A stretch of 11,795 nucleotides of DNA from positions 4,232 to 16,026 of the forward strand of contig PMCE01000274.1 of the NCBI GenBank assembly GCA_003154025.1. Direction: 5' to 3'. Below, piece by piece: positions 1 through 11,795 of this stretch. Source of the DNA: Syntrophaceae bacterium (lineage in GTDB: Bacteria > Desulfobacterota > SM23-61). The translations under genes were made by a program, and so were the position numbers. Below the pieces are notes generated by a model that saw only the letters and a list, made by a program, of their open reading frames with translations, did not search any database and was not told the DNA's origin. Every line of letters begins with the position of its first letter. Within the stretch, counting starts at the first letter, position 1.

Positions 1-1488
1 CGCGACGGTCCTGTTCCGCTTTATCGCCCAGCGGATCAGGGGATAGAGAATAGATACGATAGCGGCACAGAGGAAGACCGCGGAAATCGGATGGTGGAAG
101 AAGGTGGAATAGGAGCCGTTGGAGATGATCAGGGCGCGCCGGAAATGGGTTTCCAGCATGGGGCCCAGGACGATTCCCATGATCACCGGTGCGGAGGGAA
201 GATCGGCATGCTTCATGAAGTAGCCGATGACCCCGAAGATCAGGGTGACATAGACCTCCGTCACGCTGTTGTTGGTGGCATAGGTGCCGGTGATGGCGAT
301 GACCAGGATGAAGGGAAGGAGAAGGGGGAAGGGGATCTTCAACATCTTGACCCAGATGCCGATCAAGGGAAGGTTAATGACCAGGAGGAGGAAATTTCCG
401 ATATAGAGGCTGGCGATCAGCCCCCAGACCAACTCCGGGCTTTTCTGGAATAGAAGGGGGCCGGGGCGCAGTCCGTAGAGCATCAAGGCCCCCAATAGAA
501 CCGCGGAGACTCCGGTGCTCGGAATTCCCAGAGTCAGAAGAGGAACCATGGCCCCTCCGCTGGCCGCGTTGTTGGCCGTCTCCGGTCCCGCGACGCCCTC
601 GATGGCCCCTTTGCCGAATCTCTCCGGGTGCTTGGAACATTTTTTCTCCACCAGGTAGGAAACGACCGAAGCCAGGGTCGCGCCGCCTCCGGGCATGCAG
701 CCGATCAGAAACCCGATCACCGTGCCCCGGGCGATGGCCCATTTGCTGTCCGCCCAGTCTTTTAAAGAGGGCAGCAGGCCTTTGATCTTTTCCACGACCG
801 GCCTCATCATCTCCAATTCGGCGGTTAGCAAAACCTCGGCGATGGCGAAGAGCCCGATGGCCACCGGGAGGAACCCGATCCCGTCCATAAAATCGGGGAT
901 CCCGAAGGTGAACCGGTCCACCCCGCTCACCGGGTCGATTCCGACCGTTCCCAGGAAGATTCCGAAAGCGGCCATCAACAGGCCTTTGATGACCGATTCC
1001 CCCATCAACCCTCCCAGGGTGCAGAGGGCCAGGATGAGCATGGAGAAGTATTCCGTGGGACCGAAGCTCAACGCTACTTTGACCAAGGGCTCGGCCAGAA
1101 GCATCAACATCAAGGTGGCAAAAGTCCCGGCGATGAAGGAGCCAAAGGCCGCAATCCCCAGAGCCGGGCCGGCCCTTCCCTGGAGGGCCATCTGATAGCC
1201 GTCCAAGGTGGTCATGATGGCCGGCGCCTCGCCGGGCGTGTTGATGAGGATGGCAGTCGTAGAACCGCCGTACATGGCGCCATAGTAGATTCCGGAGAGC
1301 ATAATCATGGCGGCCGTGGGGTTCATGCCGAAGGTCATGGGAATGAGGATCGCCACCGCGTTCATCACCCCCAGGCCGGGAAGAACGCCGGTGACGGTCC
1401 CGATGAAAACGCCCAAAAGGCAATATAGAAAATTGGCGGGAGAGAGGGCGACGGTAAAACCGTACATGAGGTTATTGAAGATTTCCAA
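1..1488 (-). CDS. tctA: TctA, large membrane subunit of a tripartite tricarboxylate transporter (partial, runs off left edge)
   Basis: Large integral-membrane permease of a TTT-family secondary transporter, which takes up a carboxylate delivered by the periplasmic TctC protein. The frame is open from 1488 to base 1, giving 496 visible residues with no stop. TctA proteins are usually about 500 residues, so only a short C-terminus is missing. Seen directly: a hydrophobic start ([15 protein letters not shown]), the GVLPGLG motif near residue 35, [20 protein letters not shown] near residues 65-85, and a second copy of the family signature in the middle ([12 protein letters not shown], then [23 protein letters not shown]). 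Many hydrophobic stretches follow. I chose the TTG at 1488 because GGAGGG lies 5 nt upstream. The first ATG, at 1467, is too far from that site. It follows tctB after 12 nt, as expected for a tctCBA operon. The substrate cannot be read from the sequence. Confidence 0.93.
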
Positions 1489-1500
1489 GGAAACCCTCCG

Positions 1501-1956
1501 CTAGAACCCGAACCAGCCCTTCGGCAGGGGGACTTTCAACAGGGTGTCGAATAGAATATAAATCGAAATTGGAGTCACCAGGGAGAAGAATATGTTGAGA
1601 AACCATTTCCTCCGGTTAAAATAGGCCAGCAGCGCAAAAGTAACCACCCCGGTCGATAACAGGTAACCCAGTCGCTCGATGGTGAACCCGTAGACGAAGC
1701 ACCAGGCCACGATCCAGATAATCCGGTTCCACATCCGCTTCTCCGGGGGAGTGTCGGGGCCCTTGCCCGCCCCTTTGGGTTTTTGAACCAAAAGGGCGAT
1801 GGATAGCCCGGCCATGAACAAAGCGGCGATGGCCGGGAAGAAGAAGGGGCTGGGTCCCGAGGAGTCCGGAGGAGTGGGACTCCCCAGGATAAGAACCAGG
1901 ATCGTCCCGCTCAGGATGAGCATGAGCAGGCCGGTGTACATTTCCTTTTTCTTCAT
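1501..1956 (-). CDS. tctB: TctB, small membrane subunit of a tripartite tricarboxylate transporter
   Basis: Small, poorly conserved membrane subunit that partners TctA in the inner membrane. The 151 residues begin MKKKEMYTGLLMLILSG and show four hydrophobic segments, the usual TctB arrangement. They lie near residues 7-25, 38-55, 80-100 and 105-140. A conserved-looking GPSPFFFP stretch lies between the first two. The C-terminus (LLKVPLPKGWFGF) matches the typical TctB ending, in which a Leu-Pro-x-G tail closes the protein. A longer form starting at TTG 2007 is possible, but its extra 17 residues are encoded in degenerate repeat sequence and no ribosome-binding site precedes it. The chosen ATG at 1956 also lacks a strong Shine-Dalgarno. 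Position between tctC and tctA is the strongest support for the assignment. Confidence 0.85.
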   Translation of the reverse strand: MKKKEMYTGLLMLILSGTILVLILGSPTPPDSSGPSPFFFPAIAALFMAGLSIALLVQKPKGAGKGPDTPPEKRMWNRIIWIVAWCFVYGFTIERLGYLLSTGVVTFALLAYFNRRKWFLNIFFSLVTPISIYILFDTLLKVPLPKGWFGF

Positions 1957-2079
1957 TTCGATGGACGCTGAAGGCGCAAGGCCGAGAATTCGAGGTTCAA
2001 GGATCAAAGGTCAAGGGCCAAGACAAAAAATGGAGGCCCGAGGCCGTCAACCCGTAACTCGGAACTCGAAACCCGAAAC
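1957..2079. repeat. tctC-tctB spacer made of degenerate short tandem repeats
   Basis: The 123-bp spacer is built largely from imperfect direct repeats. Around 2051-2080 the unit resembles AACTCGAAACCCG, and around 1990-2020 it resembles CAAAGGTCAAGGG. No gene is visible. On the minus strand a small GGCC-TCG-GGCC hairpin followed by ATTTTTT (about 2044-2025) could weaken or end transcription after tctC, but the 4-bp stem is poor evidence for a terminator. Confidence 0.4.
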
Positions 2080-3054
2080 TTATTTTTTCGAAAGTCCCAA
2101 CTCATCCATGATGGGTTTCACCATGTTATAGTCGTTGTCCGCGTCTTTGAGGAAATCCTCTTTCACCAGCCAGCCGTCTTCCAGGAGGCTGGTCTGCAGG
2201 AATTTCTTCCATTCCGGCGTTTTACGAACCTTATCCAGGACCGCAATCCAGTAATCGACCGCTTCTTTCGGGATTCCGGCCCGGCCGACGATGGAGCGGG
2301 TCTGGACGCTGATCACGTCATACCCCTGCTCGCGGAAAGTCGGTTGGTTGGGGAACATGGATGACCGCTTCTCCGTGCATACGGCGAGGATCTTAACCTG
2401 TTTGGCCTCGAGCTGGCCGATGCACTCATTGGGATTGGCCCAGGCGGCATCGATGTGCCCTCCCAGGAGGTTGGTCACGACCTCTCCGCCGCTGTTGTAG
2501 GGAACATAATTGAACTGCTGTTTCGTGGCCTTGTTGAGAACGAAATTTCCGACCTGATCAGGCCCCCCGATCCCCGTGCCGCCCAGGGAGATTGACTTGG
2601 GCCCCTTCTTCTTGACGGCCTCCACCAGGTCTTTGCCGTCCTTCAGGGGAGAGTCGGCCTTCACGATGATTAAGTTGATGTCACTGACGATCCGGGCGAT
2701 GTAGGCAAAGTCTTTCCGGTAATCCCACTTGGCCTTCCCGTCGATTTGATGGGAAACGGTAGCCAAATCGAAGCAGGTGAAGGAGTAACCGTCGACCGGC
2801 CTGGAAAGACAGAATGCTTTTCCGATCGACCCCCCTCCTCCTGGTTTGTTTACGATGTTGACCGGCTGGGGCACCAGCTTGTACTGGCTGATGATCTTCT
2901 CGATGTTGCGGAACATGATATCCGTTCCGCCGCCGGGAGCGTAAGGAACGATGATATCGATGGGTTTGGTCGGATACTTGCTCTGGGCCGGAGCCGATCC
3001 CGCCGCACCCAGGATCAGAAATCCCAAAGAGACAAACAGAAGCATTTTTTTCAT
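2080..3054 (-). CDS. tctC: TctC, periplasmic substrate-binding protein of a tripartite tricarboxylate transporter
   Basis: Extracytoplasmic solute receptor (Bug/TctC family) that binds the carboxylate in the periplasm and hands it to TctAB. It has 324 residues, a normal family length. Residues 1-23 form a signal peptide: MKK start, a hydrophobic core, and an APA-Q type cleavage site with no lipobox Cys. The mature start KYPTKPIDIIVPYAPGGGTD is the family's hallmark. Also present are NIVNKPGGGGSIG, a VPYNSGGEVVTNLLGGHIDAA segment near residues 185-205, and the late TFREQGYDV motif. The start is the ATG at 3054, with AAGGAGGG 8 nt upstream; a TTG two codons earlier sits too close to that site. 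It is separated from the genes to its right by a terminator-like palindrome, so it probably begins its own transcript. Homologues bind citrate, aromatic carboxylates or amino acids; the ligand here is unknown. Confidence 0.93.
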   Translation of the reverse strand: MKKMLLFVSLGFLILGAAGSAPAQSKYPTKPIDIIVPYAPGGGTDIMFRNIEKIISQYKLVPQPVNIVNKPGGGGSIGKAFCLSRPVDGYSFTCFDLATVSHQIDGKAKWDYRKDFAYIARIVSDINLIIVKADSPLKDGKDLVEAVKKKGPKSISLGGTGIGGPDQVGNFVLNKATKQQFNYVPYNSGGEVVTNLLGGHIDAAWANPNECIGQLEAKQVKILAVCTEKRSSMFPNQPTFREQGYDVISVQTRSIVGRAGIPKEAVDYWIAVLDKVRKTPEWKKFLQTSLLEDGWLVKEDFLKDADNDYNMVKPIMDELGLSKK

Positions 3055-3188
3055 CGACAAACCCTCCTTTTAGAATTGCAGCCAAAGATAATTGAAATGT
3101 TGGGTTTCAAATTCGAATGTTGAAATCCGATCCAGGTCCGAATTTCTAAATTCCAAACTTGATGGTCTCGAAAAAAAAGTCTCTCAGG

Positions 3189-3568: not shown

Positions 3569-4216
3569 TTACAGCCGGTTTACCGTGTACACGGGAACGA
3601 GATCCTTGAGCATTTCCACGGACCGGTAGGGGTTGACGATCCCGCAAGCGCACGGTGCGGCGACAATCAGGCTTGCCTCCCAGAGGTCCAGTTTGCCCGT
3701 TTTGATCCGGCGGATCACGTCCCGCACCAGCCGGGGGGAGACCATGCCGTGTCCGCACATGGTGGTGAACTGGCGGATGTCCGCCGGCGGGAGTCGGTCG
3801 GTGCGCCCGTGGATTCCGAGGGAGAGGTTGATGGTGTGGGGGTTCAGGCCAAGCTCGGCGGCCACCTCCCGCACCCGGTCCGCGACTCCGCTCACCATGA
3901 TGGAGATCCCTTCATCCATCTCCATGATCTTGGCCAGGGTCTTTTTGATCTTTTCTTTTTCGTTGAAGACGGAGTAGATCTTGGCCCCGTCTTTGATGCT
4001 CTTCAGGATCTCCTCCTGAGGAATCCCGAAATACATATTCTTGCGCAGGGTGCTCACGAGCATGTTGGCCGGGCCCTGGGTGTAGAGCATCTCCATCAGC
4101 CGCCGGGACTTCGGTCCGCTGCCATCGTAGTTGAACCCCCTGGCCGGATAGATGAAGAGGACGTACTCCTGGTTCAATAAATCCAAGGGTCCTTCACGGT
4201 GCAAGCTGTGGGTCAT
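3569..4216 (-). CDS. Unnamed CGHG/CxC family protein, cysteine version (copy A)
   Basis: I do not recognise a named family. The protein has 215 residues, appears soluble and cytoplasmic, and has no signal peptide or membrane segment. Conserved across the three copies in this window: an N-terminal ARGFN motif (residues 25-29), DxGISI-VSG near 101-110, LGIHGxT near 133-139, MCGHGxVS with Cys154 and His156, and PCxCGIxNPxR near the C-terminus with Cys189 and Cys191. The clustered Cys and His suggest a redox centre or a metal or Fe-S site (inference). The start is ATG 4216, which overlaps the stop of the preceding ferredoxin gene as ATGA, implying translational coupling. A longer form from 4276 would lie inside that gene in another frame. 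Position 191 is Cys (TGC) here but TGA in copy B, making this the cysteine twin of a predicted selenoprotein. The two proteins may act on the same partner or form a mixed complex. Confidence 0.85.
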   Translation of the reverse strand: MTHSLHREGPLDLLNQEYVLFIYPARGFNYDGSGPKSRRLMEMLYTQGPANMLVSTLRKNMYFGIPQEEILKSIKDGAKIYSVFNEKEKIKKTLAKIMEMDEGISIMVSGVADRVREVAAELGLNPHTINLSLGIHGRTDRLPPADIRQFTTMCGHGMVSPRLVRDVIRRIKTGKLDLWEASLIVAAPCACGIVNPYRSVEMLKDLVPVYTVNRL

Positions 4217-5047: not shown

Positions 5048-5076
5048 GTAGGGGCGACCCGCCGGGTCGCCCCTAC
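5048..5076. repeat. Perfect 13-bp palindromic intergenic repeat (GTAGGGGCGACCC type)
   Basis: GTAGGGGCGACCC (5048-5060), the loop GCC, and its exact reverse complement (5064-5076). The same GTAGGGG...CCCCTAC frame occurs in two hairpins at 11116-11196, so this belongs to a dispersed short palindromic repeat family. It lies 9 nt after the proposed end of the selenoprotein gene and could also stabilise that 3' end. Confidence 0.6.
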
Positions 5077-5085
5077 GGTCTTCGA

Positions 5086-5733
5086 TCACAGACGGTTTAC
5101 GGAATAGAGGGGAACCAGTTCTTTGAGCATCTCTGCAGACCTGCAGGGGTTGAAAATCCCTCAGCTGCAGGGGGCGGCGGCCAGCAGGCTTGCCCCCCAG
5201 AGGTCCAGCTTCCCCGTCTTGACCCTGCGGATCAAGTCCTGGATCAGCATGGGCGAAACCATGCCATGACCACACATGGTGGTGAACTGGCGGATGTCCG
5301 CGGGCGGGAGACGGTCCGTCCGGCCGTGGATTCCCAGGGAGAGGTTGACGGTATGGGGGTCTATGCCGAGGTCCGCAGCGATCTCCCGGACCCGGTCGAT
5401 GACCCCGCTGATCACGATCGAGATCCCCTCGTCCATCTCCTTGATCTTGGCCAGGGTTTCCTTGAATTTTTCCTGGCCATCCAGCACGCAGAAAATCTTG
5501 GCCCCTTCCTTGATGCTGTCCAGGATTTCCTCTTGGGAAACCGCCAGGTACATGTTCTTCCGGAGGGTGGTCGCGAGGAGGTTGGCCGGACCCTGGTGGA
5601 AGAGCATCTCTCCCAGGCGCCTCACCTTGGGTCCGCTGCCGTCATAGTTGAATCCCCTTGCCGGGTAGACGAAGAGGACATACTCCTTCTCCAGCAGGTT
5701 AAGAGGGCCTTCACGGTGCAAGCTGTGAGTCAT
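5086..5733 (-). CDS. Predicted selenoprotein: unnamed CGHG/CxU family, Sec at residue 191 (copy B)
   Basis: Same unnamed family as the gene ending at 3569. Ordinary translation stops at TGA 5163-5161 after 190 residues, in the middle of the conserved C-terminal motif. Read as selenocysteine, the motif becomes PCSUGIFNPCR, matching PCACGIVNPYR in copy A and PCLCGIFNPDR in the copy at the right edge. The frame then runs 24 residues to a TGA at 5088-5086, giving 215 residues, exactly the length of copy A and with the same VNRL ending. Of those 24 residues, 18 are identical to copy A. A SECIS-like hairpin follows the TGA. Other conserved parts are ARGFN (25-29), LGIHGRTD (133-140) and MCGHGMVS (Cys154, His156). 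The ATG at 5733 overlaps the ferredoxin stop as ATGA. The role is probably redox or metal chemistry through the Cys189-x-Sec191 pair (inference). A nonsense mutation is the alternative, but it would not explain the hairpin or the preserved tail. Confidence 0.87.
5131..5163 (-). promoter_or_regulatory. Selenocysteine TGA codon with bacterial SECIS-like hairpin
   Basis: The TGA is at 5163-5161. Nineteen nucleotides later begins a GGTC tetraloop (5141-5138) closed by a 5-bp stem, CTGCA (5146-5142) with TGCAG (5137-5133), plus one more C-G pair after a mismatch. The 12-nt core TGCAGGTCTGCA (5145-5134) is, from memory, identical to the apical part of the E. coli fdhF SECIS element, where the same loop starts 18 nt after the UGA. 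The bulged U below the E. coli apical stem has no obvious match here. Confidence 0.8.
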
Positions 5734-6467
5734 GAATCTTTCCTCTTATTGGCCCTTCCCAGGCCCATGTTGATTTTGGCATTCGGTCGCCGGGTGTATC
5801 CTTCGGCCTCGATCGTGTCGAGCAATTCCCGGGGGATGGTGAGCCTCGGCCCGACGCGGGTGTACACGTCCACCACGAAGACGCTGTCCACCTCTTTGGC
5901 CGCTTCTTTGATGGTGCGAAGAGCCAGGCCGACCTGATCCGGCTTCACCTTGAATTCCATGATCGCGCTCAGGACCTTTTCGCCCATCAACTCCGGCTTC
6001 AAGTCTCCGGTGGCATGATTCTGGATCATGTCATTGAAAGGGTTTTCGGGCTCGATCTCGGTGAACCCGGCTTTGGCCATGGCCCGGGTGACCTTTTGGA
6101 TGTTCGTCAGGTCCATTCCCAGGGTGGGCCTTCCGAATTCGATGGCCATCCCCACTTCCCCGGGTACGACCCGGTTGATGACGTCATTGCTCTTCGACTC
6201 TTCCGTTCCCCGCCCGGCGATGCCGGTAAGGGCATGGGTGGCATTGGGGTCGCTGAAGAATTTCCGCAGCGCCCGGGGATACTCATACACGTACGGGGAT
6301 TCCTCGATGGCGTCCACCGGACAGACCTCGGAACGCAGGCAGGTCCCGCATTCATAGCAGACCTCCTGGTCCACGTTACTCTTCAGTTCTTCGAAACGGA
6401 TGGCCCCCACCGGACAGTAGGGCTGACACCGCCCGCAGCCGACACAGAGATCTTTTCGAACCAGCAT
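5730..6467 (-). CDS. Two-cluster ferredoxin-domain protein with conserved C-terminal domain (copy B)
   Basis: Paralogue of the ferredoxin-domain gene at 4213-4950, also 245 residues. It has CVGCGRCQPYCP (Cys8, 11, 14, 18) and CYECGTCLRSEVCP (Cys37, 40, 43, 49), each expected to hold a [4Fe-4S] cluster. These are followed by the same unnamed domain with GRGTEES (85-91), a shared TLGMDL segment, ENPFNDM and VVDVYTR. The start is the ATG at 6467, chosen because GGAGAGGA lies about 9 nt upstream and because it gives the same length as copy A. A much longer open frame reaching 7070 exists, but it lies inside the FAD oxidoreductase gene and encodes Arg/Pro-rich non-homologous sequence. It starts 2 nt after the oxidoreductase stop and overlaps the selenoprotein start by 4 nt, so all three are probably cotranscribed. 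It is the likeliest direct redox partner of the selenoprotein (inference). Confidence 0.88.
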   Translation of the reverse strand: MLVRKDLCVGCGRCQPYCPVGAIRFEELKSNVDQEVCYECGTCLRSEVCPVDAIEESPYVYEYPRALRKFFSDPNATHALTGIAGRGTEESKSNDVINRVVPGEVGMAIEFGRPTLGMDLTNIQKVTRAMAKAGFTEIEPENPFNDMIQNHATGDLKPELMGEKVLSAIMEFKVKPDQVGLALRTIKEAAKEVDSVFVVDVYTRVGPRLTIPRELLDTIEAEGYTRRPNAKINMGLGRANKRKDS

Positions 6468-6469
6468 TT

Positions 6470-7738
6470 CTATTTTTCCTCTCCAGGAATGAGCCTGGCC
6501 CTCCTGCGACCGGTCCCCCGCTCCGACAGGTTCGGGGACATGAGGCGGAAGGAAGGCTTGATTAATCTTTCGACTTGGGAACGGGAATCTCCGCCCTGGA
6601 TCATCCGGTGATGCAGAGGTCCCGCACCGGTAATGTCTCCCACCAGCGCTCCTCCGGTGATTCGACCCTCCCGCAGGAAGACTTGGCGAAGGAGGCCTTC
6701 CGAGGGCGTCGCATAAAGGATCTCCTCGGACCCCTCCGCGAAGGCCCCCAGCATGTTGAGGGCGAGACCCTGAAGGTTCATGGAGTTTACCCGGGTCAAT
6801 GCTTTGAGGGGGAGGGGGTTCGACCGGTACAGGTTCGCGGCAGCCAGTTTCCCCTGGGAAACCGCCTGGGGCCAGGTCCAGGGGGTGTACGTCTTCCCGT
6901 CCGGAGTGAGAATCGTGACCGCATCGCCGGCGGCAAAAATCCTTGGATTCTTTGTCTGGAGGGCGGCGGAAACCCGCAGCTTTCCTTCTTCCAACAACCC
7001 GGAACTTTCGAGGAAAGAGATATTGGGGGCTGACCCGATCGCCAGAAGCAGGGCATCGCAGGGGATCCATTGCCCTCCTGCTTTTGCCCTTTTAATCTTT
7101 CCGGTCTCACCCTCAACGGACTCGAGGGTCTGGCCCAGGTAGAGGTCGATGCCCATCCGGCGGAAGTGCTCTTCTATATATTTCGCTGTTTCTGTTCTCA
7201 GCGCCTGGGGAAGGAGATGGTCCTCCTTCTCCACAATCGCGATTTGGAATCCGGCGGTCCGGAGGTAAACGGCGGTTTTGACTCCCACGAGTCCGCCGCC
7301 CAGGACCACGATTCTCTGATCCTTGGTAATCCAGTTATGGACCCTCTCGGCTTCAGGGAGGTTGCGGACCGGGAAAACCCCCTCCAGGGAATCGGCCCCT
7401 TCTACACGGGGAATGATGGGCCGGCCTCCCGGAGCCAGGATCAGCCGTTCAAAAGCGATGGTCTCCCCGTCTTCCAGCTGAACCTTCTTCCCTTCTTTGT
7501 CCAGGGATTGAACCTTGGTCCCAGTCTTGACCATCAGCAGGGGATCTTCCGCGAGCTTGAAAAGAGAAAGCTTCTCTTCTTTTACCTGGCCCGCCATATA
7601 CTGAGGGAGCATGGGGCGGCAGGTACCGATGCTCTTTTCCCCTTCGATCAGAGTTACCGATTTCCGGGTCCAGCACTGCCGGCATTGAAGAGCGGCATGA
7701 ATGCCAGCGGGCCCGCTTCCGACGATGACGATGTCCAT
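6470..7738 (-). CDS. FAD-dependent NAD(P)H oxidoreductase (pyridine nucleotide-disulfide oxidoreductase family)
   Basis: Flavoprotein of 422 residues that moves electrons between NAD(P)H and a protein partner, probably a ferredoxin. Seen directly: an N-terminal FAD Rossmann motif GSGPAG (7-12), an NAD(P)-binding GGGLVG (147-152) after a hydrophobic strand, and the late FAD motif AAGDAV (269-274). There is no CxxxxC redox disulfide. A single Cys40 lies in TCRPMLPQYMAG, where relatives usually have a YSRxxLP stretch, and a further pair is in QCRQC (19 and 22). The C-terminal ~30 residues are basic and unlike the core. The ATG at 7738 has AGGAAGAG 8 nt upstream. The order CooF-like, CooS-like, FAD oxidoreductase recalls clostridial CO dehydrogenase loci, where such a protein couples ferredoxin to NAD(P)H. 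That parallel is established for those loci; coupling here is inference. Confidence 0.88.
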   Translation of the reverse strand: MDIVIVGSGPAGIHAALQCRQCWTRKSVTLIEGEKSIGTCRPMLPQYMAGQVKEEKLSLFKLAEDPLLMVKTGTKVQSLDKEGKKVQLEDGETIAFERLILAPGGRPIIPRVEGADSLEGVFPVRNLPEAERVHNWITKDQRIVVLGGGLVGVKTAVYLRTAGFQIAIVEKEDHLLPQALRTETAKYIEEHFRRMGIDLYLGQTLESVEGETGKIKRAKAGGQWIPCDALLLAIGSAPNISFLESSGLLEEGKLRVSAALQTKNPRIFAAGDAVTILTPDGKTYTPWTWPQAVSQGKLAAANLYRSNPLPLKALTRVNSMNLQGLALNMLGAFAEGSEEILYATPSEGLLRQVFLREGRITGGALVGDITGAGPLHHRMIQGGDSRSQVERLIKPSFRLMSPNLSERGTGRRRARLIPGEEK

Positions 7739-7829: not shown

Positions 7830-9293
7830 CTATTTTATAAACCAATCCAAAATCTCTTCCGCCTGGGCCGGATGGTCATAATGAGTCAGGCTTCCGCCCA
7901 AAGCGGCCAGTTTTTCCTGCAGCAGATTGCGGACTTTTTCGCTTCCCCAGAGGGGCAGCGGTACGGCCACGCTGACCTTCAGGCCCATCCCGGCCAGCCC
8001 AAGGGCTACCCCCAGGTCCTGGCAGCTTTTCATTCCGGTAAAACATACCCCTTTCACATCTTTCACCCGTCCGGAGGCCGCCAGCGCTTTCAGCGCCAGA
8101 ATCGGCCCCTGCTCACCGCCGAGAATCTGGACGGGGGATTTCATTTTTGGGGAGGCAAGGCCCTTTTTGACCATCCATAACGCGCCATCCCCCCAGCTCG
8201 AAACCGCGAACCCCTTGCCCTGGAGGGCGGGGGTTACTTCGGTCGGGATCCAACCCAAGGGGTGGTAGGGATGATCGGCTCCACCGAGAAGGGCCAGTTT
8301 TTTTGCCGGCCCCTTTCGGAAGGATTCTTCCAAAAGCGACGCGCTGCCGGCCGCCTCGGCTTCTTCCACCAATGAAAGCTGTGGGTTGAAACCGGATTGC
8401 GGCGGGGCCCCTTTACCCTCTTTGACCTTGGCCCCTAGATTCCGCACCGATTTGGGATCCAGCGATGAAGCGGAAGGAATATTCAAGGTTCGGCAGAGCT
8501 CGAGGATGGAGGGATCGGTACCCGGTCCGGCAATCAAGAGCTTGATTTTCCCCGAGCTCAAAACCAGCTCGGATTCCCCCGAAGTGCAGACGCAGGGCAG
8601 GTAACTTCCATCCAGGGGGATGAATTCGCCCAGGGAGATAAGCTGTCCCCCGCCGGAAAGACTTCGGTTGACTTCGGCCAGGACCGCTTTCTGGAATTCA
8701 GAAGACGGCTGCCCACAGACCCCGATGTTGAAATCCTTTTGGGCCAGAAGGCCATAGCCGACAACCAGGGGGAGAGATTTTTTCCGTCCCTGGGACGCAG
8801 CTCCCTTGGCGAGCCAGCCGATCGTCAACAGGGCCAACCGCAAGGACTGGTTGAGCAGACCTTCGGGGGATTCCATGGGTCTCATTAAAAAGGAAGCGGC
8901 GGTCTGAATCTCCGCCGAAGAGATCTGTTCCCCTCCGAGCTTCTTCGAGGCCCGCGAGACCGCATCTTTCAAAGCGGCATCCCAGGAAAGTTCCCTGGCG
9001 GGAGCGGGCATGGCTTCCAGGGCCCCGGAGAGGCTCAGGCGAACCAGAAGCGCGGCAACCATGCCGTCCCGGTCGAGCCCGCAGAGCCCCCGTTCCGGTC
9101 CGCGGCCAAAGGGGTCGATTCGGCAGGGCCCCTGGAGGCAACCGTAAGGGCAGCTCAGCCCCATCCGGAGGAATCCATCCTGCGGCTGGAGTTTTTCGAA
9201 ACGGTCCCAGGTCAGCTTGATTCCTTTCTGGTAGGCGGATTTCAGAAGGTCCTGGCTGATGGGATCGACGGTCTTAACCTGGATTGTTTCCAT
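7830..9293 (-). CDS. Divergent CO dehydrogenase-like (CooS-fold) protein lacking most active-site ligands
   Basis: The N-terminus matches anaerobic CO dehydrogenase catalytic subunits: TVDPISQDLL, WDRFEKLQPQ, then SCPYGCLQGPCRIDPFG and GLCG. Cys48, 52, 57 and 71 fit the four B-cluster ligands. The positions of the dimer-bridging D-cluster cysteines read Asp39 (PQDGF for PQCGF) and Ser47. In the body, VGYGLLAQKDFNIGVCGQP aligns with the GHNP region but lacks the C-cluster His. CVCTSGESE (Cys234, 236) resembles the CCTGNE region, LALLGGADHP lacks the Cys of FAGCNN, SSWGDGALW lacks that of ATGCGAGAL, and MKSCQDLG (Cys424) fits the last ligand. At 487 residues it is far shorter than the usual ~630. 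Oxidation of CO by a normal Ni-Fe C-cluster is therefore unlikely. I infer an electron-transfer or scaffold role, or a different active site. The ATG at 9293 has AAGGAG 11 nt upstream and follows the CooF-like gene after 32 nt. Confidence 0.8.
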   Translation of the reverse strand: METIQVKTVDPISQDLLKSAYQKGIKLTWDRFEKLQPQDGFLRMGLSCPYGCLQGPCRIDPFGRGPERGLCGLDRDGMVAALLVRLSLSGALEAMPAPARELSWDAALKDAVSRASKKLGGEQISSAEIQTAASFLMRPMESPEGLLNQSLRLALLTIGWLAKGAASQGRKKSLPLVVGYGLLAQKDFNIGVCGQPSSEFQKAVLAEVNRSLSGGGQLISLGEFIPLDGSYLPCVCTSGESELVLSSGKIKLLIAGPGTDPSILELCRTLNIPSASSLDPKSVRNLGAKVKEGKGAPPQSGFNPQLSLVEEAEAAGSASLLEESFRKGPAKKLALLGGADHPYHPLGWIPTEVTPALQGKGFAVSSWGDGALWMVKKGLASPKMKSPVQILGGEQGPILALKALAASGRVKDVKGVCFTGMKSCQDLGVALGLAGMGLKVSVAVPLPLWGSEKVRNLLQEKLAALGGSLTHYDHPAQAEEILDWFIK

Positions 9294-9325: not shown

Positions 9326-9859
9326 TTATTTCAGGTCGAGAAGAAGCAAGCCCTTCTTCTTATTCTCGGCGATTTTTTTGGCTACTTCTAGCCTCCGGTG
9401 TTCGAATATTTTTTCAAACTCCTCCACCTCCACCAGCTCCAGCGCTTTGCAGGGGCAGACTTCCACGCAGACCGGATTGTCCATGAAAGCGCAACGGTCG
9501 CATTTCAGGGCGATCTTCCGGTCCGGCCAGGGGTAAATGACCCCGTAGGGACAGAACATGGTGCAAGTCCAGCAGGCGATGCAGCGGTCCTCCTGGACGA
9601 CCACCAGGTTCGACTTGGGGTCCCGGGTCAAGGCCCCGGTCAGGCAGGCGTCGATGCAGGGAGCGTTTAGGCAGTGGCGGCAATGCATGGGAAGGGGAAA
9701 CGGATTGCTTCCTTCCACGCGGACACGGGCCTTGGGCCGGGGAAATTCCTGGACGGCTTTCAGCAGAGTCTTCCCATCGCTTCCTCTTTCCGCCGCGCAG
9801 TAAAGCTCGCAGGTTCTGCATCCGGTACAACGATCCAAATGGACTCCGATGACCTTCAT
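9326..9859 (-). CDS. CooF/HycB-like polyferredoxin, four [4Fe-4S] clusters
   Basis: Electron-transfer subunit of 177 residues in the family of CooF, HycB and DMSO-reductase B subunits. Sixteen ligand cysteines fall in four groups: Cys11/14/17/21 (CTGCRTCELYC), 60/63/68/72 (CRHCLNAPCIDAC), 93/96/99/103 (CIACWTCTMFC) and 120/123/131/135 (CDRCAFMDNPVCVEVC). That is enough for four cubane clusters. The cluster-rich part ends near residue 140, and a charged, probably helical tail follows. There is no signal peptide, so it is cytoplasmic. The ATG at 9859 has AAAGGAG and GAAGGG upstream. It lies directly before the CooS-like gene, the same partnership as CooF with CooS, and would link that protein to the FAD oxidoreductase or to the ferredoxin modules downstream. 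Confidence 0.88.
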   Translation of the reverse strand: MKVIGVHLDRCTGCRTCELYCAAERGSDGKTLLKAVQEFPRPKARVRVEGSNPFPLPMHCRHCLNAPCIDACLTGALTRDPKSNLVVVQEDRCIACWTCTMFCPYGVIYPWPDRKIALKCDRCAFMDNPVCVEVCPCKALELVEVEEFEKIFEHRRLEVAKKIAENKKKGLLLLDLK

Positions 9860-9929: not shown

Positions 9930-10079
9930 AAAGAAAAATTCCAAATTCCAATCCCGCGAAACGCGGGACCAAATTCCAAATAGTCCCCAAACAAAAGGAA
10001 TAAACAAAACCCAAGCGGGTTTTGGTCATCGGGTTTTTTGATTTGGAAATTATTTGGGATTTGGAATTTGAGATTTGGA
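9930..10079. repeat. Degenerate ATTCCAAAT repeats with a CCCGCG hairpin in the pdxA-ferredoxin spacer
   Basis: The 190-bp spacer between the PdxA-like and CooF-like genes contains repeated ATTCCAAAT/ATTTGGAAT units on both strands (about 9938-9950, 9971-9981 and 10041-10079). They surround a perfect CCCGCG-AAA-CGCGGG hairpin (9953-9967). The right-hand units run into the 3' end of the PdxA-like gene and encode its last residues. No gene is visible in the spacer. Confidence 0.5.
10005..10024 (-). terminator. Possible terminator after the PdxA-like gene
   Basis: CAAAACCC (10005-10012) pairs with GGGTTTTG (10017-10024) around a 4-nt loop. On the minus strand the stem is followed by TTTATTCC. 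It lies 25 nt after the stop at 10050. The stem is half A-T and the T-run is weak, so readthrough into the CooF-like gene is quite possible. Confidence 0.4.
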
Positions 10080-11078
10080 GCTTGCCATCCGCACCGCAAC
10101 CCTGAGGGCCGCCTGAAAAGCTCCGATGTCCGCAATCCCCTTACCGGCTATATCATGGGCGGTGCCATGGGCCGGGGTGGTAATGGGGATGGGAAGCCCC
10201 CCGGAGACGGTCACTCCGCGGTCAAACCCAAGGAGTTTGGTGGCGATCTGCCCTTGATCGTGGTACATCGTCACGACGCCGAAAAATTCCCCCTTCCGAG
10301 ATCGGACAAAGATCGTATCCGCGGGGAAAGGCCCCTTGACCTCCATTCCTTCTTGCCTCGCTCTTTCCACCGCAGGCTTAATGATACTCTCCTCTTCCGG
10401 ACCGAAAAGGCCCTTCTCTCCGGCATGAGGATTCAGAGCCGCCACTCCAATCCGCGGGTTTTCGATTCCTCCCCGAAGCATGGCTCGGTGGAGGAGGGTA
10501 ATGGCCCTTAAGATCCGGTCAACCGTGAGTTGACTGCAGATTTCCCGGAAACCGATGTGAGAGGTAACCCGCGAGGTCCACAGGGGGTCCAACACGTTAA
10601 TCTCCCCGAAAAGTTCAGTCTTGGTCAGGTGCGCGAAGTGCTCCAATTCGCCTTTGTAGGGAGATCCCGCCAGGCGCATGGCCTGCTTGTTCAACGGGGC
10701 GAAGACCATGGCCTCTGCCTGCCCGGCCAACACCTGCGGAATGGCCCACTCCAGGTACTCGAGGCATGCCTTTCCGACTTTCGCGTTGACCTCGCCGATC
10801 TTGTATTCTTTCGGGTCCAGGTTGGCCAGGTCAAACATTTCCATCAGGCCGGCCTCCCCCCTGACGTCTCCCCAGCCCTTGCGGATGACGATCTTCAGGG
10901 GGACCCTGGTGAGCTTGATGGCTTCGGCCATCACCCGCGCATCCCCGACGACTGCGGGGAGACAGAGCCGACGGGTCTCTTCGGTATTCATGGCCTTGGC
11001 CACGATCTCCGGGCCGATGCCCGTGGCATCTCCCATGATGACGGCGATTTTGGGACGGTTCGCTTGATTGGAGTCCAA
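10050..11078 (-). CDS. pdxA: PdxA-family NAD-dependent dehydrogenase, probably catabolic rather than vitamin B6 synthesis
   Basis: Cytoplasmic metal- and NAD-dependent hydroxy-acid dehydrogenase related to 4-hydroxythreonine-4-phosphate dehydrogenase, 342 residues. The family start IAVIMGDATGIGPEIVAKA is clear. The three metal-binding histidines are present: in VTSHIGFRE, LNPHAGEKG and MYHDQGQ. Substrate residues differ from E. coli PdxA: the GHTE motif reads GELE (YKGELEHFAHLT), the late GVN reads GVT, and the IRTS segment reads PITT, so the Arg is lost. This argues against a 4-hydroxythreonine-phosphate substrate. PdxA relatives such as TphB act on dihydrodiols in aromatic acid breakdown and also lack GHTE, so an oxidised carbocyclic or hydroxy acid is plausible (inference). 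The start is TTG 11078 with AAGGAG 9 nt upstream; the next ATG lies inside the family start motif. The last ~10 residues (SSKSQIPNPK) are encoded by an intergenic repeat. Confidence 0.87.
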   Translation of the reverse strand: MDSNQANRPKIAVIMGDATGIGPEIVAKAMNTEETRRLCLPAVVGDARVMAEAIKLTRVPLKIVIRKGWGDVRGEAGLMEMFDLANLDPKEYKIGEVNAKVGKACLEYLEWAIPQVLAGQAEAMVFAPLNKQAMRLAGSPYKGELEHFAHLTKTELFGEINVLDPLWTSRVTSHIGFREICSQLTVDRILRAITLLHRAMLRGGIENPRIGVAALNPHAGEKGLFGPEEESIIKPAVERARQEGMEVKGPFPADTIFVRSRKGEFFGVVTMYHDQGQIATKLLGFDRGVTVSGGLPIPITTPAHGTAHDIAGKGIADIGAFQAALRVAVRMASSKSQIPNPK

Positions 11079-11115: not shown

Positions 11116-11143
11116 GTAGGGGCGATTCATGAATTGCTCCTAC
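11116..11143. repeat. Imperfect 28-bp palindrome (GTAGGGG type)
   Basis: GTAGGGGCGATTCA followed by TGAATTGCTCCTAC forms a 14-bp hairpin with two mismatched positions. It belongs to the same repeat family as 5048-5076 and lies in the 117-bp spacer before the PdxA-like gene. Confidence 0.5.
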
Positions 11144-11167: not shown

Positions 11168-11196
11168 GTAGGGGAGGGTTTGAACCCCGCCCCTAC
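11168..11196. repeat. Palindromic GTAGGGG repeat abutting the end of the partial gene
   Basis: GTAGGGGAGGGTTT and AACCCCGCCCCTAC pair with one mismatch. The hairpin touches the stop codon of the partial CGHG/CxC gene and could act as its terminator or 3' stabiliser. No U-run follows. Confidence 0.5.
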
Positions 11197-11795
11197 TAAC
11201 CCACCATCTTTTTCAGAAGCTTGGCGGCCCGGTCCGGGTTGAAGATCCCGCAGAGGCAGGGTTTGGCCAGCTCAATCGCCGCCTTTTCCACGGTGATCTT
11301 TTTCTTCTTCATATCCTCCACCATCTTTTTTACCAGACGCCCGGAAACCAGCCCGTGACCGCACATGGTCACGAATTCCAGGATCTCGGGAGGCCAGAGC
11401 TTCTTGGTATTCCCATGGATCCCCAGGGCAAACTCAATGAGAGGAGGCTTGAGCCCCGCCTTGTTGCAGCACTCAAAGACTTCGTCAAAAAGCCCGGAAA
11501 CCACGATGGAGATACCCTGGTCTTTTTCTTTCAGCTCTTTCATGCAGCCGATCAGGCTTTCCTTATCCTTGAAAACGACCTGGCATCCCACGGTTAGCTT
11601 GTCCATGATCCCCGCGGCGTCCATCAGGTATTTGTTTCCGACCTTGCAGTCGCCGAAGTGAAGGTCCGTGTACTTGGTCATGGTCAGGGCAATCTGCTTC
11701 AGTCTGGGAGCGGCGTTCTTATCGTTGAATCCCCGGGCCACGTGGGCCAGCATGGGAAAGTCGGCCTTCAAACTCGGTAAGTCTCCCGTGCGGTG
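11196..11795 (-). CDS. Unnamed CGHG/CxC family protein, divergent third copy (partial, runs off right edge)
   Basis: The frame is open through base 11795, giving 199 residues in the window. The edge sequence HRTGDLPSL aligns with residues 6-14 (HREGPLDLL) of the two full copies, so only about five residues are missing. The TTG at 11771 and later ATG codons are therefore not real starts. It shares ARGFN, LGIHGNT, MCGHGLVS and PCLCGIFNPDR with the other copies, with Cys (TGC) at the position that is TGA in copy B. It is clearly more diverged elsewhere: richer in Lys and with a shorter C-terminus (LLKKMVG). By analogy with copies A and B, a ferredoxin-domain gene overlapping its start may lie just outside the window (inference). 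Its function is unknown. Confidence 0.82.
   Translation of the reverse strand, partial: HRTGDLPSLKADFPMLAHVARGFNDKNAAPRLKQIALTMTKYTDLHFGDCKVGNKYLMDAAGIMDKLTVGCQVVFKDKESLIGCMKELKEKDQGISIVVSGLFDEVFECCNKAGLKPPLIEFALGIHGNTKKLWPPEILEFVTMCGHGLVSGRLVKKMVEDMKKKKITVEKAAIELAKPCLCGIFNPDRAAKLLKKMVG

What the first reader, a model, noticed from the sequence alone, without database searches (positions are those of the whole stretch)
5086..5733. Predicted selenoprotein in a family I cannot name: in-frame TGA at a conserved cysteine
The TGA at 5163-5161 aligns with Cys191 of the tandem paralogue and with the equivalent Cys of the third copy, inside a conserved PCxCGIxNPxR motif. Reading through restores the motif, gives 18 of 24 tail residues identical to copy A, and ends at the same 215-residue length. 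Other genes here use TGA as an ordinary stop (both ferredoxin-domain genes), so a changed genetic code is unlikely. Standard gene callers would truncate this gene and hide the Sec.
Basis: partly seen in the sequence, partly recalled or inferred. Interest (0 to 1): 0.95.

Follow-up and report, generated by a model that had tools for sequence, protein, structure and literature searches.

The report
New selenoprotein in an unnamed family
A bacterial gene carries the codon TGA, normally a stop signal, exactly where its full-length relatives carry a cysteine, so it is predicted to make a protein with the rare amino acid selenocysteine, in a protein family that has no name in the two libraries checked and is likely part of an anaerobic electron-transfer system.

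Summary
Copy B (5086-5733, minus strand) reads 215 codons with one in-frame TGA (5163-5161) at the position of an invariant Cys; 18 of 24 tail residues match copy A.

The selenocysteine (Sec) reading is strongly supported, not proven. Of the 120 listed homologues (of 2,471), 12 stop exactly at this codon (190 aa) and 108 have Cys. Both kinds mix inside one clade; a single clade of stop forms is rejected (AU p = 0.0009). After the TGA lies a possible hairpin whose 12-nt core equals the E. coli fdhF SECIS at nearly the same distance (15 against 14 nt). In the nearest relative's order selA and selD occur in 8 of 8 genomes, selB and tRNA-Sec in 7 of 8, and SelD itself carries an in-frame TGA.

The protein matches no Pfam or NCBIfam family and is not in a 2026 table of 119 selenoprotein families. 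Sec191, Cys189 and Cys154 probably form a metal or redox site fed by the neighbouring 2[4Fe-4S] protein and flavoprotein; this is inferred.

Limits: the TGA is seen in DNA only here, folding energy does not single out the hairpin, and the window's own genome is not held.

The parts
5086..5733 (-). copy B: predicted 215-aa selenoprotein gene, Sec at codon 191, terminal stop TGA at 5086-5088
5161..5163 (-). in-frame TGA, predicted Sec codon
   Evidence: invariant Cys in the 80-row alignment with U entered as C
5133..5146 (-). predicted bacterial SECIS: 5-bp stem CTGCA/TGCAG, loop GGTC, loop 19 nt after the TGA; inner 12 nt equal to the E. coli fdhF SECIS
   Evidence: part of the best fold at 40, 46, 64 and 74 nt, not at 49, 50 or 53 nt
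5730..6467 (-). 245-aa partner B: N-terminal 2[4Fe-4S] ferredoxin domain plus a C-terminal domain with weak PII-like resemblance; its TGA stop overlaps copy B's ATG
3569..4216 (-). copy A: Cys191 tandem paralogue, 215 aa
4213..4950 (-). 245-aa partner A: 2[4Fe-4S] protein, 83% identical to partner B
11196..11795 (-). copy C: more distant Cys paralogue, start beyond the window
6470..7738 (-). FAD-dependent pyridine nucleotide-disulphide oxidoreductase (best NCBIfam model PadH, 162.5 bits, far below its cut-off of 475)
7830..9293 (-). 487-aa protein; only the N-terminal ~90 aa match the CO dehydrogenase catalytic subunit
9326..9859 (-). 4Fe-4S protein with several cluster motifs (called polyferredoxin here)
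10050..11078 (-). PdxA-family dehydrogenase
1..3060 (-). TctA (1-1488, cut by the window's end), TctB (1501-2007), TctC (2080-3060): tripartite tricarboxylate transporter genes
   Evidence: ORFs, synteny; the Tct names are recalled, these three were not run against a family library

Best explanation
The gene at 5086-5733 (minus strand) has an in-frame TGA exactly where its full-length relatives have cysteine, and this TGA is predicted to be read as selenocysteine, which would yield a 215-residue selenoprotein of an unnamed family. Predicted decoding: the SelB elongation factor, loaded with tRNA-Sec, binds the hairpin whose loop lies 19 nt after the UGA (stem CUGCA/UGCAG, loop GGUC), which has the same 12-nt core as E. 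coli fdhF. Inferred function: Sec191 and Cys189 (a CxU motif) together with Cys154, three positions that do not vary in the 80 rows aligned, likely form a metal (Fe-S) or selenosulphide redox site. Electrons likely pass between this site and NAD(P)H through the co-encoded 2[4Fe-4S] partner, the polyferredoxin and the flavoprotein, in the anaerobic use of a carboxylate imported by the adjacent Tct transporter. Shown: the TGA, its alignment, the mixture and tree, the hairpin's sequence, the machinery in relatives, the operon. Inferred: Sec insertion in this organism, ligand or redox role, substrate.
For: (1) 12 of the 120 listed homologues (2,471 in all) are exactly 190 aa and end PC[S/T/A]; the other 108 have PCxCGI. 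(2) Tree of 67 rows: a 29-row clade (support 100/92) holds 13 stop forms and 16 Cys forms; the whole tree needs 7 changes, at least 3 forced by starred branches. On a 35-row set chosen after that tree one clade of stop forms is rejected, AU p = 0.0009. (3) The tail stays coding: against the Cys orthologue L001 (89% identical) 3 replacements in 24 tail codons against 20 in 190 body codons, synonymous 8 and 49; neutral drift gives so few changes with P about 0.004-0.06 if 40-60% of the path is the window's branch (0.29 at 25%). (4) Hairpin: stem 5 bp, loop 4 nt with G first, 19 nt spacing, -9.3 kcal/mol over 40 or 46 nt, within the published bSECIS limits (PMC13188914, section 5). The 12-mer TGCAGGTCTGCA lies 15 nt after the TGA here and 14 nt after it in fdhF; synonymous-codon null P = 0.0003 in 20,000 draws; among the 87 loci then held only fdhF has it. 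(5) Machinery in the order of the nearest relative: selA 8 of 8, selD 8 of 8 (all 10 matches over the cut-off with one in-frame TGA), selB 7 of 8, tRNA-Sec 7 of 8 over the cut-off. (6) Cys154, Cys189 and position 191 are invariant in 80 rows (U entered as C). (7) Polyferredoxin, CODH-like gene, flavoprotein, 4Fe-4S partner and 215-aa gene stand together in 16 of 26 loci: L001, L003, L004, L006-L010, L012-L019.
Against: The TGA itself is seen in DNA only in this window: all 26 genome-contig loci have Cys, and the close matches in 8 of 395 and 9 of 395 genomes (two draws that largely overlap, E <= 1e-60) have no stop inside. For the 12 proteins of 190 aa only the protein is held, so their stop codon could be any stop. 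The window's own genome is not held. The general bSECIS shape is not rare: a stem as long arises in 25% of synonymous recodings and a fold as stable in 26%. Folding energy is no better than shuffles (z from -0.9 to 1.0 in five lengths), and in the 49-, 50- and 53-nt folds another pairing beats the hairpin. The fdhF identity was noticed after the fact, and the same pattern turns up elsewhere without meaning: of 8 hits in 395 genomes (1 for the reversed control) only 1 lies in a formate-dehydrogenase-like frame. The nearest relative G001 has no tRNA-Sec over the cut-off, and G006 no selB over it. Nothing shows a metal, an activity or a substrate.
Confidence: 0.88

Rival explanations
1. The TGA is a real stop: copy B ends at 190 residues and has lost the last 25, with a partly decayed tail still readable downstream.
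For: 12 database clusters end at the same residue, and general folding statistics do not single out the hairpin. A neutral tail would still look this good in 0.4-29% of simulations, depending on the branch share.
Against: Full-length Cys forms are nested among the stop forms: one clade of stop forms is rejected (AU p = 0.0009). The lost part holds one of three invariant Cys positions plus the invariant Gly192, Asn195 and Arg198. The tail ends at the family's usual length with no further stop.
Confidence: 0.08
2. Sequencing or assembly error (TGC or TGT read as TGA) in this window.
For: Only one DNA copy of the TGA is at hand.
Against: 12 further clusters (157 member sequences, 82-97% identical to the window's protein) end at the same residue.
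Confidence: 0.01
3. UGA is reassigned to another amino acid in this organism (changed genetic code).
For: One in-frame TGA is followed by conserved coding sequence.
Against: Of the 11 window genes whose stop lies in the window, 3 end in TGA: both ferredoxin-domain genes and copy B itself. Relatives carry the Sec machinery.
Confidence: 0.01
4. Sec is inserted, but its role is a CxU selenosulphide redox pair (Cys189-Sec191), not a ligand of a metal cluster.
For: CxU motifs occur in catalogued selenoproteins such as ferredoxin-thioredoxin reductase and rhodanese form 3 (PMC13188914 Table 1).
Against: A third Cys (154) in MCGH is just as invariant, and the partners are iron-sulphur proteins, which fits a metal site better. 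No geometry could be measured.
Confidence: 0.4

Closest known systems
E. coli formate dehydrogenase H (fdhF) UGA and SECIS
   Same: In-frame UGA followed by the identical 12-nt core TGCAGGTCTGCA, 14 nt (fdhF) or 15 nt (here) after the UGA.
   Different: Unrelated protein; over 46 nt the fdhF stretch folds as one long stem (-14.9 kcal/mol), the window's as two short hairpins (-9.3).
Catalogued selenoproteins with a CxU motif (ferredoxin-thioredoxin reductase NF041072, rhodanese form 3 NF041203, UshA-like NF041198, thioredoxin-like Sec.1 PF13192)
   Same: Sec two residues after a Cys; redox context (PMC13188914 Table 1).
   Different: Copy B matches none of them at E <= 1; among the relatives none is in the part of the lists shown (25 of 40 Pfam and 25 of 32 NCBIfam families). 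The sequence PCxUGIxNPxR is not in the table.
MCR activation complex (McrC, Mmp7, Mmp17)
   Same: A loose analogy only: small Cys/His-bearing proteins that hold Fe-S clusters in an electron path (PMC12176620, passages); one weak Foldseek row of the partner is McrD (E 0.045, rank 46).
   Different: No sequence or fold match to McrC or Mmp proteins was among the rows listed; Sec is not mentioned there in the passages seen.
PII-like signalling proteins (CPII, SbtB, GlnK)

Membership tests
Bacterial selenoprotein | In-frame UGA at the position of a Cys conserved in homologues | tested here: met
Bacterial selenoprotein | Other UGA-bearing homologues | tested here: inconclusive
   12 of 120 listed homologues end at this residue, but their codons could not be read
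[quoted passage not shown]
   5 bp, 4 nt GGUC, 19 nt, -9.3 over 40 or 46 nt (limits from PMC13188914). The criterion alone is weak: 25% of recodings have such a stem, and 49-, 50- and 53-nt folds prefer other pairings
Bacterial selenoprotein | selA, selB, selC and selD in the organism | tested here: inconclusive
   Own genome not held; in the order of the nearest relative 8/8, 7/8, 7/8 and 8/8
Bacterial selenoprotein | Sec shown in the protein | not testable with these tools
   needs 75Se labelling or mass spectrometry
Ferredoxin-thioredoxin reductase (CxU selenoprotein form) | Match to NCBIfam model NF041072 | tested here: not met
   0 NCBIfam families for P0002 at E <= 0.1 and at E <= 1
PII-like fold | Clear fold match over a whole domain | tested here: inconclusive
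McrC / Mmp proteins of the MCR activation complex | Sequence or fold match | tested here: inconclusive
   Not among listed matches; a missing row does not exclude a relation

The most novel reading that the evidence does not exclude
An undescribed family of anaerobic Fe-S selenoenzymes in which Sec is one of three invariant ligands (Cys154, Cys189, Sec191) of a catalytic metal cluster with an open coordination site, fed by a CODH-like, flavoprotein and ferredoxin chain for carboxylate breakdown, and in which Sec and Cys have been exchanged several times within one bacterial clade, with decaying SECIS remnants in Cys orthologues such as L001 and L002.
Probability: 0.3. Interest if true: 0.78.

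Novelty: new member of a known kind. Interest (0 to 1): 0.62.

Why it matters
It adds a selenoprotein family that gene callers appear to truncate (12 database clusters stand at 190 aa, 4 labelled 'hypothetical protein' and 8 without a name), in a widespread but unnamed Fe-S-linked operon. Because stop and Cys forms alternate among close relatives, and one operon holds both side by side (copy B and copy A), it offers a natural experiment on why selenium is kept or dropped. It also marks residue 191 as likely to be at the active site of an enzyme whose function is unknown.

Tried and rejected
Rejected: sequencing error, reassigned code, plain truncation (see rivals). Generic RNA folding of the hairpin region: no better than shuffles, and at 49, 50 and 53 nt another pairing wins, so energy is not used as evidence; the argument rests on the fdhF 12-mer and on the codons.

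Led nowhere: Rfam and tRNA search of the window (none); viral contigs (none); phylum-wide search for another genome with the TGA (close matches in 8 of 395 and 9 of 395 genomes, draws largely the same, none with a stop); class searches (5 of 8 genomes match; 1 of 1); solved structures by sequence (3 rows at E 0.04 or worse); Foldseek in viral models (no E <= 0.001); neighbour genes in distant loci (two proteins in L022 resemble formyl-CoA-transferase-type models below cut-off; in the others no clue to function). One distant paralogue has a TAG inside (L056; not followed up). The McrC/McrD idea, prompted by one weak Foldseek row for the partner and looked up in PMC12176620, has no sequence support in the rows listed and was dropped. 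The 12-mer pattern in 395 genomes: 8 hits, 1 for the reversed control; only L093 lies in a long frame that resembles fdhF by eye (not run against a family library); the other 7 look like chance.

Literature: searches. Seen: PMC13188914 abstract, passages, section 5, section 7 parts 1-2 of 3 (these hold the whole of Table 1) and section 8; passages only of PMC9312934, PMC8318568, PMC12013277, PMC10779653, PMC12176620. Not read: the groundwater selenoproteome study cited in PMC13188914 as reference 66, and all supplements, so a listing there cannot be excluded.

Full report
WHAT IS THERE. On the minus strand, 5733-5086 encodes 215 codons with a single in-frame TGA at codon 191 (5163-5161) and ends in TGA. 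The TGA sits in PCS-U-GIFNPCR.

SURROUNDINGS. The minus-strand cluster reads copy C (cut), PdxA-family dehydrogenase, polyferredoxin, a 487-aa protein with a CO-dehydrogenase-type N-terminus, a FAD pyridine-nucleotide oxidoreductase, then two pairs of a 245-aa 2[4Fe-4S] protein and a 215-aa protein, then a three-gene Tct-type transporter (the Tct names are recalled). Polyferredoxin, CODH-like gene, flavoprotein, 4Fe-4S partner and 215-aa gene stand together in 16 of 26 genome loci; L002, L005 and L011 are cut by contig ends, and L020-L023 show only the pair of 4Fe-4S and 215-aa genes.

FAMILY. No Pfam or NCBIfam family matches the 215-aa protein at E <= 0.1; hits at E <= 1 across 80 relatives are scattered, 40 Pfam and 32 NCBIfam families, none with more than 16 members, and I take them as chance. 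The invariant residues in the 80 rows (30-86% identical to copy B) include His6, Arg7, Cys154, His156, Cys189, Cys/Sec191, Gly192, Asn195 and Arg198.

POSITION 191 IN RELATIVES. Of 2,471 homologues 120 are listed; 12 are exactly 190 aa and end PC[S/T/A], and 108 have PCxCGI. The 12 stand for 157 member sequences (sum over). A second search with the 190-aa profile lists the same 12 and no other 190-aa protein among its best 120 of 1,665. On a 67-row tree the 13 stop forms (window included) and 16 Cys forms share a 29-row clade with support 100/92; the label changes at least 7 times on the tree, 3 of these forced by starred branches. On a 35-row set chosen afterwards one clade of stop forms is rejected (AU p = 0.0009). 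A lost Cys and tail would hardly come back with the right residues; a Sec codon needs one base change to become Cys. The stop codon of the 12 is not known, because only proteins are held.

TAIL. Against L001, the closest DNA relative (89% identity, Cys), 3 of 24 tail codons and 20 of 190 body codons differ in amino acid, with 8 and 49 synonymous differences. Fourfold sites differ at 26 of 87. Neutral simulation gives three or fewer replacements and no stop with P 0.06, 0.018 and 0.004 for 40%, 50% and 60% of the path, and 0.29 for 25%. This supports a coding tail, but one pair cannot prove it.

HAIRPIN. After the TGA come 19 nt and then the loop GGUC on the stem CUGCA/UGCAG. It is part of the best fold of 40, 46, 64 and 74 nt; at 49, 50 and 53 nt another pairing is more stable, and no length folds clearly better than shuffles (z -0.9 to 1.0). 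It meets the four published bSECIS limits (PMC13188914 section 5). Those limits are loose: 25% of synonymous recodings have as long a stem, 26% as low an energy. What is not loose is the sequence TGCAGGTCTGCA, the same 12 nt as in the E. coli fdhF SECIS read here from NC_000913.3, at 15 against 14 nt; P = 0.0003 under synonymous recoding, none in 200 shuffles of the window, and of the 87 loci then held only fdhF has it. Across 395 genomes the pattern occurs 8 times against 1 for its reversed control, but only one of the 8 lies in a frame that resembles fdhF, so the pattern alone is no proof. In the Cys orthologues L001 and L002 the aligned 12 nt read TGCAGGTCCGCG and TGTAGGTCTGTA, keeping AGGTC, while copy A has TACCGGTCCGTG; AGG also occurs there in several distant paralogues, so a SECIS remnant is only suggested.

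MACHINERY. The window's genome is not held. In the 8 genomes held of the order of the nearest relative, selA is over the cut-off in 8, selD in 8 (all 10 such matches with one in-frame TGA; that of G009 is a fragment), selB in 7 (not G006), tRNA-Sec in 7 (not G001). G001 is the genome of L001 itself; it has selA, selB and two selD copies, and its contig numbers run past 350, so a missing tRNA may be a gap.

STRUCTURE AND ROLE. The 215-aa model is confident (pLDDT 90.8, pTM 0.86): an N-terminal alpha/beta domain and a C-terminal helical part in which Cys154 and the 189-191 loop stand between helices. No fold match is convincing. The partner model (pLDDT 81.9) is a 2[4Fe-4S] ferredoxin domain joined to a second alpha/beta domain. 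From three invariant Cys/Sec positions, a His, two ferredoxin clusters in the partner and a flavoprotein next door I infer a metal or selenosulphide redox site within an electron-transfer enzyme; a carboxylate substrate is inferred from the transporter and the PdxA neighbour. Distances between the three residues could not be measured here.

NOVELTY. Table 1 of PMC13188914 (119 families and subfamilies, read in full) lists no such protein, nor do the passages seen of PMC12013277 and PMC8318568. The groundwater study cited there as reference 66 was not found in the library and the supplements were not read, so a listing there remains possible. The kind (bacterial selenoprotein with fdhF-type SECIS) is known; the family looks new.

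Noticed in passing
window 7830-9293 (-): 487-aa protein of which only the first ~90 residues match CO dehydrogenase (TIGR01702); the rest has no family, yet it is a conserved member of the operon in relatives.
   Followed up: partly
L005 (620-1264) and L086: Cys orthologue with a perfect 5-bp stem CTGCC-GCTC-GGCAG at the place of the predicted SECIS (both loci are from genome G003); a possible further remnant, or chance.
   Followed up: no
L084, L085 and 8 of 8 genomes of the G001 order: SelD carries an in-frame TGA, so this order makes SelD itself as a predicted selenoprotein.
   Followed up: partly
L001 39-1454: Group II intron reverse transcriptase just upstream of the polyferredoxin gene in the nearest relative, where the window has PdxA.
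   Followed up: no
window 5048-5076: Perfect 14-nt inverted repeat GTAGGGGCGACCCG just after copy B; a palindrome at 11116-11143 shares the start GTAGGGGCGA, perhaps a repeated intergenic element.
   Followed up: no
L014 12187-12831: Second close 215-aa copy (67% to copy A) in one cluster besides the one at 10001-10642, so Cys copies can also be duplicated.
   Followed up: no
L056 (G004:C121): A distant paralogue of the 215-aa family with one in-frame TAG inside the match.
   Followed up: no
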